From Candidatus Methylomirabilota bacterium (GTDB lineage: Bacteria > Methylomirabilota > Methylomirabilia > Rokubacteriales > CSP1-6), in NCBI GenBank assembly GCA_035709005.1, contig DASTFB010000107.1, positions 1 to 48,254 of the forward strand: 48,254 nucleotides of DNA, read 5' to 3'. The position numbers were made by a program, and so were the translations under genes. Position 1 is the first letter of the stretch, and each line of letters begins with the position of its first letter. The notes beneath the pieces were generated by a model. It was not told where the DNA came from. It saw nothing but the letters and a program-made list of their open reading frames with translations, and did no database searches. Of this stretch, positions 45,629 to 48,254 are shown one piece after another.

Positions 45629-45691
45629 GCCCGAACACCAGCGGGCGAGCGAGCGAATCGGTTTGACATCGGTCGGGGCCCCTGACCCCTG

Positions 45692-45768
45692 CCAACGTCC
45701 CCCAACGAACTGCCTGAAATCGTACGCCTAACGTCCCCTCCCCTTTGGGGCTCATTGGGGGACGTTGG
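45692..45768. repeat. 14-base perfect inverted repeat upstream of the DUF4062 gene
   Basis: CCAACGTCCCCCAA (45692-45705) is repeated in inverse at 45755-45768, 49 bases apart. A partial third copy, AACGTCCCC, lies inside at about 45730-45738. Just after, GACTCTGAGAGTC (45787-45799) is a palindrome preceded by a similar CTCTGAGAG. The 289-base gap between aroB and the DUF4062 gene has no gene I can see. The structure could be a terminator-like hairpin or the ends of a small non-autonomous element. Confidence 0.6.
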
Positions 45769-45917
45769 GACGGGACCTCTGAGAGTGACTCTGAGAGTCG
45801 CCGACGCCCCCGACCCGTCTCCTCCCCTGGCCGGCGGCATCCGGCGCGATGGCGCCCGCATCTCGGATTTGTTAGTTTGATGCGGGCCCAAACCCTCCAG
45901 GTCTCAAGGGGCGAAGC

Positions 45918-47102
45918 ATGCCGAGCCGAGCGCCCGCGGTCATGGTGAGTTCCACATTCTACGACTTACGGCAGATTAGGGCGGACCTGACCACGTTCAT
46001 CGTCGATGACCTTGGGTATGTCCCCTTGCTGTCTGAACTCAACTCGTTTCCTGTCGACCCCGATGCCGCGACGATCGAGAACTGCCGCCGCAGGGTCGAG
46101 GAAGACGCCGACATCTTGGTTCTCATCGTCGGAGGCCGATATGGCTCCGTCGATTCCAAGTCTGCCCGATCGGTCACCAACCTTGAGTATCTGACCGCTC
46201 GCGCGAAGGGCATTCCCGTCTACGCCTTCGTTGAGAAGAAAGTGCTCGCCGTGGTACCTGTGTGGCGCCAGAATCCCGATGCTAACTTTACCGGGATCGT
46301 CGACGATCCTCGCGTTCTCCACTTTATCGATCAGGTTCGATCGGTCGATCAAGTGTGGACTCATGAGTTCGAAACCGCCCAGGAGATCATCGACACCCTG
46401 CGCATGCAGCTAGCGTACCTGATGACCGAAGGCCTCTCATGGCGCCAACAGCTGCGACAGCGCTCTCGCGAATCGCGGATCCTCGAACGGCTCAAGAGCG
46501 AATCGCTTCGCCTGGCCCTTGAACGTCCACTGGCTTGGGAGTACCGCCTCTTCAGCCAGGTCTTGGCCGACGAAGTTGAAAATTGGTGTGATCTCAAGCG
46601 GGACTATCAGCTTGGTGTGGTCCTCGGTCTCGGAGAGTATCTCGCGCTTGAGGATTTTCATCCTTGGATGCAGGCGCGAATGGCCGAGCTTAAGCGAACG
46701 GTCGCGGCCGCAGTCACCCTCGTCAATGAGGTCGCGCCGCAGGCCTTTGGCCCACTGGGGACACACGGAGATCCCGAGACCATCGTGTTCGTTGCCCGGC
46801 GCATTGGGGACGTCTATCGCCATCTGTTGGAGTGGGCGCAAATGGTGCGACGCGCGGCTGTGGATGAGAGACTCACCGCCGTCGTCACGGAACTTGCTGG
46901 ATTCGCAGATGGCATCATCGGACAGATTGAAAGCCTGGGCCCCCGCGTCCTCGCTGGCATTGACGAGGCGTTGGCACAGCCGTCCAGCGAAGGGGTGAAG
47001 GTCCTCCATGTGACGCTAGAGTTGGCGATCCCCAATGTGGAGCGGTTTCAGCAAGCCCTGGACCAAGCGTTGCTTGACCTCGGACTATCGTACGATGCCT
47101 GA
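45918..47102 (+). CDS. DUF4062 domain protein, possible conflict/defence protein
   Basis: 394 residues. The N-terminal ~115 residues are a clear DUF4062 domain: VMVSSTFYDLRQIRADL, GYVPLLSELNSF, then ENCRRRVEEDADILVLIVGG with RYGS, and NLEYLTARAKGIPVYAFVEK. It is a Rossmann-like fold found at the N-terminus of many NTPase and immunity-type proteins. The remaining 270 residues are mostly helical, with no NTPase motif, and I do not recognise them. AAGGGG precedes the ATG. Base composition is visibly lower in GC than its neighbours (46321-46380 has 30 G/C of 60; 45301-45360 in aroB has 43). This suggests recent arrival. The next small gene starts inside its last codons. Confidence 0.8.
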   Translation: MPSRAPAVMVSSTFYDLRQIRADLTTFIVDDLGYVPLLSELNSFPVDPDAATIENCRRRVEEDADILVLIVGGRYGSVDSKSARSVTNLEYLTARAKGIPVYAFVEKKVLAVVPVWRQNPDANFTGIVDDPRVLHFIDQVRSVDQVWTHEFETAQEIIDTLRMQLAYLMTEGLSWRQQLRQRSRESRILERLKSESLRLALERPLAWEYRLFSQVLADEVENWCDLKRDYQLGVVLGLGEYLALEDFHPWMQARMAELKRTVAAAVTLVNEVAPQAFGPLGTHGDPETIVFVARRIGDVYRHLLEWAQMVRRAAVDERLTAVVTELAGFADGIIGQIESLGPRVLAGIDEALAQPSSEGVKVLHVTLELAIPNVERFQQALDQALLDLGLSYDA

Positions 47103-47331
47103 CCTCACGGGCCCCATGTGCGGATGGTCGGACTGCAACGAAACGGCGCCGATCCGAGACCCCGACACCGGGGCCGACATCCCGCTCCCCTCGGGCTGGC
47201 GGGCGCTGGGGCTGTCGAAGTACTCGCTGCTGGAGCCCTCTGGGGTGCTCCACGCCGACCGCGGCATGGTCCTGTGCCCGGTCCACGTCGAGGCGCTCAA
47301 GCGCCTGTTGAAGCGGATACCGCTGGGCTGA
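47095..47331 (+). CDS. Small cysteine-containing protein, possible zinc-binding
   Basis: 78 residues from ATG 47095, which lies inside the final codons of the DUF4062 gene, so translation is likely coupled. CGWSDC near the N-terminus and LCPVH near the C-terminus give Cys-x4-Cys and Cys-x2-His pairs, enough for one metal site. The middle (GLSKYSLLEPSGVLHADRGM) looks like a folded beta segment. GC content is back to the high local level, unlike the DUF4062 gene. No family recognised. Confidence 0.6.
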   Translation: MPDLTGPMCGWSDCNETAPIRDPDTGADIPLPSGWRALGLSKYSLLEPSGVLHADRGMVLCPVHVEALKRLLKRIPLG

Positions 47332-47437
47332 TCGGCGAGCGCGTGGGAGACATCCCCGTACAGCCTCGACGGCGTCGAACAACACGAAGAAGAACACGAA
47401 CGTGCTCGTCCACCGGAGGGAGACGCGTCCGCCCGCG

Positions 47438-48034
47438 TTACAGACCCTTTCTCTTCTCAGCGTCCCTGGCCGCTTCGATCAGTTTGCCCAGTTCCTTGCT
47501 CTCGTACGAGAGGGTGAGGGTGATCTTGAATTCCCGACCGAACAGCAGGACCGTGATCTTCGAGCCCGCGGTCGCGTATTCTGATCCCATGACGAGATGG
47601 CCCGCGGCGACCGCCATGTGCCACCGCGAGCGGTCGTCACGAAAGAGGTCTTCCTTCCAGATGGTCCGCTCCTTCACGGGAGGGCCGTACTTCTCCGTGA
47701 GCAGTTTCTGAAGTTCTTCGTAGTCGGTGATGTACTGGCTATCGTGGGCGGGCTTCTTCGGGAACCGCACCATGACCCGGGCGAGGCGATCATCGTCGAG
47801 AAAGAAGAACCCCAGGTCCGCCTCACGCCCCGCCACGCGAGCCCCCTTGCTCGTCAGCAGCGTCAGGCCGTCGACCTTACGCGGCAGGGGCTGGGCCTGG
47901 GGATAGAGGGTCTTGACTTCCTGCTGGGTCATCCCCCAGTGCGTCTCGCCGTAGCCTTCGCCTTGGGTTGAGGCCGGGGCAGGTGCCAGCAGAGCCGCGA
48001 CCAGCAGAAGAGCGAGTGGGGGGTTCGCCTTCAT
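47438..48034 (-). CDS. Exported protein of unknown function
   Basis: 198 residues. A clear signal peptide (about 1-23, LALLLVAALLAPAPAST) is followed by GETHWGMTQQEVKTLYPQAQ, a W-G-M-x3-EV motif common in small exported proteins of environmental bacteria. The rest alternates beta strands (ADLGFFFLDDDRLARVMVRF) with a helix (YEELQKLLTEKYGPPV), consistent with a small periplasmic alpha/beta domain. The C-terminus is a charged helix. I cannot name a function. Between this gene's stop and the small Cys protein lie about 106 bases without a recognisable feature. Confidence 0.75.
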   Translation of the reverse strand: MKANPPLALLLVAALLAPAPASTQGEGYGETHWGMTQQEVKTLYPQAQPLPRKVDGLTLLTSKGARVAGREADLGFFFLDDDRLARVMVRFPKKPAHDSQYITDYEELQKLLTEKYGPPVKERTIWKEDLFRDDRSRWHMAVAAGHLVMGSEYATAGSKITVLLFGREFKITLTLSYESKELGKLIEAARDAEKRKGL

Positions 48035-48121
48035 GGGGTCCTCTCCCGGCGAAGAGTTTTAACACCGTAACGGACCCAGGGCCACTGGCGCCCGTCCGCT
48101 TGACGCGAAAGCCATGGACGG

Positions 48122-48254
48122 CTAGGTTGCCTCGCTATGCCGCCTGGCTTCCTTGATGGCCTCCTCGAGGTCCTGCAACACATGGTCGTCCCATTCCGAG
48201 AGCGAGAAGCAGGCGGTCGTCTGTGACGCCCATCGGGGCCATTTGTCGCCCGGC
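48122..48254 (-). CDS. C-terminal fragment of a hypothetical protein
   Basis: The reverse frame is open from the right edge to TAG at 48122-48124, about 43 codons. It reads as plausible protein: PGDKWPRWASQTTACFSLSE, then an acidic-basic helix LQDLEEAIKEARRHSEAT. The gene begins outside the window. No family assigned. Confidence 0.5.
   Translation of the reverse strand, partial: PGDKWPRWASQTTACFSLSEWDDHVLQDLEEAIKEARRHSEAT

What the first reader, a model, noticed from the sequence alone, without database searches (positions are those of the whole stretch)
45918..47331. Lower-GC DUF4062 gene coupled to a small Cys protein beside a 14-base inverted repeat
Seen: DUF4062 N-terminus, unknown helical C-terminus, clear GC drop, and a start codon for a 78-residue Cys/His protein inside its last codons. 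Inverted repeats lie just upstream. DUF4062 occurs in NTPase-type conflict proteins, but here no NTPase is attached. It may be a two-gene defence or toxin-like unit recently acquired, although the small gene's high GC argues that it was resident.
Basis: partly seen in the sequence, partly recalled or inferred. Interest (0 to 1): 0.6.

Follow-up and report, generated by a model that had tools for sequence, protein, structure and literature searches.

The report
Acquired TIR-like NADase antiphage suicide gene
The gene encodes a probable antiphage 'suicide' enzyme, a TIR-like NAD-destroying domain joined to an undescribed helical sensor-like domain, and it was brought into this bacterium on a mobile DNA island; the tiny Cys protein after it is not a conserved partner.

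Summary
In detail: a 394-aa gene (45918-47102) with an N-terminal DUF4062, lower GC, a 78-aa Cys/His ORF starting inside its last codons, and a 14-bp perfect inverted repeat upstream. DUF4062 is now known (2026 preprint PMC13174449, "Swarozyc") to be a TIR-like NADase that kills phage-infected cells. The window protein keeps the catalytic Glu (E90, invariant in 20 homologues), and its model has a TIR fold (SPARTA TIR Z 12.6; SARM1 about 11). Its C-terminal ~200 residues are a well-predicted helical domain (pLDDT 90) absent from Pfam and unrelated in sequence to Swarozyc's portal-sensing domain. Full-length homologues (28-47% identity) occur in at least five phyla, several beside Gabija, type I restriction-modification, candidate defence genes, integrases or in a prophage. 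The C-terminal domain also occurs alone, once directly behind a PIN-nuclease gene. None of 94 other genomes of the phylum has the full gene. In relatives aroB abuts a TPR gene; here this junction is broken by an island with integrase and transposase genes. So: an acquired TIR-like NADase defence gene of a distinct DUF4062 subtype. The "two-gene unit" is not supported: the small ORF looks coding but is an orphan absent beside every homologue.

The parts
45918..47102 (+). DUF4062 (TIR-like NADase) gene, 394 aa
   Evidence: ORF; Pfam DUF4062 E 5.9e-17; profile hit to KpSwz 10wc E 1.4e-7
45918..46427 (+). TIR-like catalytic domain, about residues 5-170; putative catalytic Glu E90 (codon 46185-46187) in the motif SVTNLEY
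   Evidence: Model mbb6e1126fa5e, pLDDT 82.9; TIR fold matches Z 9-12.6 over residues 5-169; E90 invariant in 20 rows and aligned by hhalign to the KpSwz-type catalytic Glu
46473..47099 (+). C-terminal helical domain (residues 186-394), putative sensor or oligomerisation module; motif WEYxLF...AFGxPGxxGDxExI
   Evidence: Model ma6325f3f3e8f, pLDDT 90, pTM 0.86; no Pfam family; stand-alone homologues E 2e-31 and 8e-29
47095..47331 (+). 78-aa orphan ORF with Cx4C ... CxxH; start overlaps the DUF4062 stop
   Evidence: Coding-like composition; no homologues
45692..45768 (.). 14-bp perfect inverted repeat (45692-45705 / 45755-45768), extended 23-nt arms 87% complementary; 64 nt after the aroB stop
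45629..48254 (.). Left part of an acquired island inserted at the aroB|TPR junction; the right part lies at the end of contig C11 (integrase and transposase remnants)

Best explanation
The gene encodes a single-protein abortive-infection effector. The N-terminal DUF4062 (about residues 5-170) is a TIR-like NAD+ glycohydrolase; a helix of about 30 residues (154-183) links it to a C-terminal helical domain that most likely keeps the enzyme off and switches it on by binding a phage component and oligomerising. Active enzyme would deplete NAD+ and stop growth or kill the infected cell before phage release. It arrived on a mobile island inserted between aroB and the TPR-efp-accBC genes. Shown: TIR fold of the model, conserved catalytic Glu, homology to the experimentally tested KpSwz in the catalytic domain, mobile context, defence neighbours of homologues. 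Inferred: NADase activity of this protein, phage sensing by the C-terminal domain, abortive infection.
For: DUF4062 E 5.9e-17. KpSwz (10wc) is the top PDB sequence hit, E 1.2e-4 with the single protein, 1.4e-7 with the family profile; hhalign 98% over 111 columns with KpSwz-type proteins (the reference L128 matches 10wc full length at E 2e-97). The 10wc chain is consistent with the E97A mutant ('FTEKAF' against 'TEKEF' in close relatives), and the mutated position aligns with query E90, invariant in 20 homologues. TIR folds dominate the structural matches: SPARTA TIR-APAZ Z 12.6 (rmsd 2.9, 129 residues), SARM1 Z 11.0, nucleoside deoxyribosyltransferases Z about 11. The preprint shows DUF4062 of Klebsiella pneumoniae to be a portal-activated NADase giving abortive infection (PMC13174449). 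Homologues: next to GajAB (L020), between hsdS and hsdM (L029), beside PDC-S31 (L017) and PDC-S02 (L016, L018); in a prophage region (L012), beside integrases (L027, L032), near conjugative-element genes (L015); Enterococcus plasmids next to Fic and AbrB/Doc genes. Absence from the other 94 phylum genomes and the broken aroB|TPR junction with integrase and transposase remnants.
Against: No experiment on this subtype. The C-terminal domain is unrelated in sequence to the KpSwz portal sensor (hhalign probability 0.1), so the trigger may be different or not a phage. Human NWD1, NWD2 and NPHP3 carry DUF4062 but showed no NADase activity in the preprint. PADLOC has no model for it. No enrichment test of the neighbours against random genes was run; two of the three closest homologues (L013, L014) have no obvious defence neighbour.
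Confidence: 0.77

Rival explanations
1. A TIR-like enzyme that makes an NAD-derived signal, or hydrolyses another N-glycoside (deoxyribosyltransferase- or CMP-glycosidase-like), rather than simply depleting NAD+.
For: Structural matches to nucleoside 2-deoxyribosyltransferases and CMP N-glycosidases score as well as those to TIR NADases (Z 11.0-11.4 against 10.9-12.6); the preprint notes distant similarity of DUF4062 to NDT and allows more complex mechanisms.
Against: Tested family members (KpSwz, TEP1) produce only ADP-ribose and nicotinamide; no signal-receiving effector gene lies beside this gene in the window.
Confidence: 0.13
2. A two-gene toxin-antitoxin or defence pair in which the 78-aa Cys/His protein controls the DUF4062 toxin.
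For: Stop-start overlap and coding-like composition of the small ORF; a Cx4C...CxxH pattern could bind zinc.
Against: No similar ORF downstream of any of the homologues examined; no relatives of the small protein in 98 related genomes, plasmids or viral contigs; homologues occur without a conserved partner.
Confidence: 0.06
3. A degraded or neutral passenger of the island with no current function.
For: Only one genome of the phylum carries it; the island's integrase is only a partial match.
Against: The ORF is full length, all invariant residues of 20 homologues from several phyla are intact, and the model is confident.
Confidence: 0.07

Closest known systems
Swarozyc (KpSwz, K. pneumoniae DUF4062; PDB 10wc/11cq/11cv; PMC13174449)
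   Same: Homologous N-terminal DUF4062 TIR-like domain with the same catalytic Glu; single protein; separate C-terminal auxiliary domain linked by helices; defence or mobile neighbours of homologues
   Different: The C-terminal domain is an all-helical bundle of about 200 residues with no sequence relation to the HTH/winged portal-binding AUX of KpSwz; the trigger is unknown
DUF4062 proteins of Enterococcus plasmids (WP_228081223.1)
   Same: Same two-domain architecture over 99% of the length, 33-36% identity
   Different: Neighbours are Fic and AbrB/Doc genes, not a small Cys ORF
SPARTA TIR-APAZ, SARM1 and plant TIR NADases
   Same: Fold of the catalytic domain (Z 9.5-12.6)
   Different: Detected by structure only; different activators (Argonaute, ARM/SAM, NLR)
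Stand-alone C-terminal-domain protein behind a PIN_4 gene (Arthrobacter sp. ERGS1:01 plasmid, WP_150116995.1)
   Same: Homologous C-terminal domain (E 2e-31)
   Different: Separate gene next to a putative nuclease instead of fused to an NADase

Membership tests
DUF4062 / TIR-like NADase family | Significant match to the DUF4062 profile | tested here: met
   PF13271 62.1 bits against a cut-off of 24.7, residues 8-94 of 394
DUF4062 / TIR-like NADase family | TIR-like fold | tested here: met
   AlphaFold2 model; best VIA-align matches are TIR and NDT folds, Z up to 12.6 over residues 5-169
DUF4062 / TIR-like NADase family | Conserved catalytic Glu (E97 of KpSwz) | tested here: met
   E90, invariant in 20 homologues and aligned with the KpSwz-type Glu
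DUF4062 / TIR-like NADase family | NAD+ hydrolysis to ADP-ribose and nicotinamide | not testable with these tools
   Needs purified protein and HPLC
Swarozyc sensu stricto (KpSwz type) | KpSwz-type auxiliary domain (HTH/winged, binds the phage portal) | tested here: not met
   hhalign of the C-terminal profile A4 against KpSwz-type proteins: probability 0.1; sequence similarity to 10wc ends at residue 108; the domain model is all-helical. 10wc was not in the fold library, so its fold was not compared directly
Swarozyc sensu stricto (KpSwz type) | Portal-activated abortive infection | not testable with these tools
   Needs phage challenge
   No similar small gene near homologues; no homologue of the small protein
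STAND/NACHT-type DUF4062 proteins (TEP1, NWD1) | NACHT ATPase next to DUF4062 | tested here: not met
   No NTPase family in residues 95-394

The most novel reading that the evidence does not exclude
The C-terminal 'WEY...GxxGD' helical domain is an undescribed, mobile phage-sensing module that bacteria attach to different killers: fused to a TIR-like NADase in this family and encoded as a separate partner of a PIN nuclease in Actinobacteria.
Probability: 0.38. Interest if true: 0.65.

Novelty: new variant of a known kind. Interest (0 to 1): 0.45.

Why it matters
DUF4062 was recognised as an antiphage NADase only in 2026, from proteins with one type of sensor. This subtype has another, undescribed C-terminal domain, is spread over at least five bacterial phyla, and is absent from the defence library searched here. 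If the domain is a sensor, finding its trigger would show what else the DUF4062 executioner can be wired to, and the PIN-linked version would show that the same sensor can drive a nuclease.

Tried and rejected
Small ORF as partner: rejected as a conserved unit. Inverted repeat as a member of a dispersed repeat, an Rfam RNA or a classical terminator: the 14-mer is unique in the genome, no Rfam hit, no terminator-like site at its position; function unresolved. Inverted repeat with a matching copy at the right island end as attL/attR: only a 13-bp chance-level match (GACCTCTGAGAGT, E 0.37) between the two contig ends. NTPase or metabolic C-terminus: no Pfam, NCBIfam or PADLOC hit. Fold of the C-terminal domain: best matches are talin-rod bundles at Z 8.9 with Foldseek E of 0.26 or worse and no significant viral match; for helical bundles this is within the noise, so no kinship is claimed. 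Single-sequence scans of genome contigs and viral contigs found nothing; the alignment-based scan worked. The alignment-based viral scan returned DUF4062 relatives matching only the N-terminal half. The scan failed for lack of conserved stretches.

Full report
Observation. The window holds a 394-aa ORF at 45918-47102 (+) with DUF4062 at residues 8-94 (E 5.9e-17). GC falls to about 59-61% over the gene against 65-69% around it; GC3 is 0.70 against 0.85-0.89 for aroB and aroC. A 78-aa ORF (47095-47331) starts inside its last codons; its frame alone has coding-like codon composition. A 14-bp perfect inverted repeat lies at 45692-45705 / 45755-45768, 64 nt after the aroB stop; it is rarer than chance (0.05 expected per window), folds strongly as RNA (z -3.7) and is unique in the genome.

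What DUF4062 is. The only significant PDB sequence match is the DUF4062 protein KpSwz (10wc; E 1.2e-4 single sequence, 1.4e-7 with the family profile). The accompanying preprint (PMC13174449) shows that DUF4062 is a TIR-like NADase and that KpSwz ('Swarozyc') is activated by a phage portal protein and causes abortive infection, with E97 as the catalytic residue. The deposited chain reads FTEKAF where close relatives read TEKEF, consistent with the E97A construct described in the paper, and this position aligns with E90 of the window protein. E90 and the surrounding S-x-T-N-x-E motif are invariant in 20 homologues.

Structure. AlphaFold2 with the 20-sequence alignment gives mean pLDDT 82.9. Residues 5-169 match TIR domains (SPARTA Z 12.6, SARM1 about 11) and the related nucleoside deoxyribosyltransferases and CMP glycosidases (about 11). 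A helix at 154-183 leads into a C-terminal domain that, predicted alone, reaches pLDDT 90 and pTM 0.86 and is all-helical. That domain has no Pfam family in any of 18 members above chance level and no convincing fold match.

The family. An alignment-based scan of GTDB species genomes returned 48 loci, 22 of them (L012-L033) matching along most of the length; four more are on Enterococcus plasmids. Hosts include Bacillota, Bacteroidota, Planctomycetota, Calditrichota and Armatimonadota; one further hit (L023, Acidobacteriota MAG) is split over two frames. The tree puts the window protein with a planctomycete and a Spirosoma sequence (99/95 support), i.e. no trace of vertical descent. Of 94 other genomes of its own phylum none has a full-length homologue; two have a DUF4062 domain in other contexts.

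Neighbourhoods. By PADLOC and Pfam: GajA and GajB immediately upstream in Acetobacterium (L020), position between hsdS and hsdM of a type I RM system (L029), PDC-S31 (L017) and PDC-S02 (L016, L018, a near-identical pair) candidate defence genes, integrases (L027, L032), a prophage region with an AntA antirepressor (L012), and lysozyme/CHAP and TraG-like genes (L015). That is at least 9 of 22 loci with a defence or mobile gene within about three genes, from manual inspection and without a random-gene control; L013, L014 and L019, for example, show none.

Acquisition. In related genomes aroB is followed within about 0-40 nt by a TPR gene with its own promoter, then efp, accB and accC. In the window's genome the TPR-efp genes lie near the end of another contig (C11), preceded by a partial phage integrase (Pfam E 5e-4) and an open-ended ORF with an rve transposase core (E 9e-4; IS21-like by its sequence, my reading). 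The last 29 bases of the window match only one other place in the genome, 0.7 kb inside the same end of C11 (93% identity). The simplest reading is one island inserted at the aroB|TPR junction, with the assembly broken inside it. The physical link between the two contigs is inferred, not shown.

C-terminal domain as a module. The profile of the C-terminal domain finds two stand-alone proteins on actinobacterial plasmids (E 2e-31 and 8e-29). The first starts 8 nt inside the end of a PIN_4-domain gene. The domain shows no relation to the KpSwz auxiliary domain (hhalign probability 0.1), whereas the catalytic parts align at 98%. The window protein is therefore a member of the DUF4062 TIR-like NADase family but not of Swarozyc in the narrow sense: the executioner is the same and the putative sensor is different.

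Small ORF. None of the homologous loci has a similar small gene, and no relative was found in related genomes, plasmids or viral contigs. It may be a real orphan gene translated by stop-start coupling, but nothing ties it functionally to the NADase.

Verdict. Most likely an acquired single-protein abortive-infection NADase of a distinct, apparently uncharacterised subtype. NADase activity, trigger and phenotype of this protein are inferred.

Noticed in passing
L009:7109-8567 (Arthrobacter plasmid NZ_CP012477.1); L011:5884-6621 (pTC1): The C-terminal domain of this DUF4062 subtype occurs as a separate protein, in L009 directly downstream of and overlapping a PIN_4 gene; possible PIN-linked defence pair.
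   Followed up: partly
G000:C11 end = L106:8900-10575: Upstream of the TPR-efp operon of the window's genome lie a partial tyrosine integrase and an IS21-like transposase running off the contig end; probably the right part of the island that begins in the window.
   Followed up: partly
window 48226-48254 and L106:9833-9861: A 29-bp, 93% identical stretch, found only at these two places in the genome, reads as PGD[KQ]WPRWA in a small ORF at both contig ends.
   Followed up: partly
window 47438-48034 (-): A 198-aa predicted secreted protein (signal-like N-terminus) with no family and no homologue in 59 related genomes; probably part of the same island.
   Followed up: no
L133 (Salmonella Newport plasmid record NZ_CP051374.1): A DUF4062 gene sits between a P2-like virion morphogenesis/tail gene and baseplate gene V, a typical place for prophage cargo.
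   Followed up: no
L021, L031: Near-identical DUF4062 relatives preceded by a 90-aa 5' fragment of a uvrB-like gene in two Bacillota contigs; possible insertion into, or co-transfer with, a uvrB fragment.
   Followed up: no
L034-L056: A second DUF4062 subtype, mostly in Bacteroidota, with a short C-terminal region ending in a conserved DDDLPF motif.
   Followed up: no
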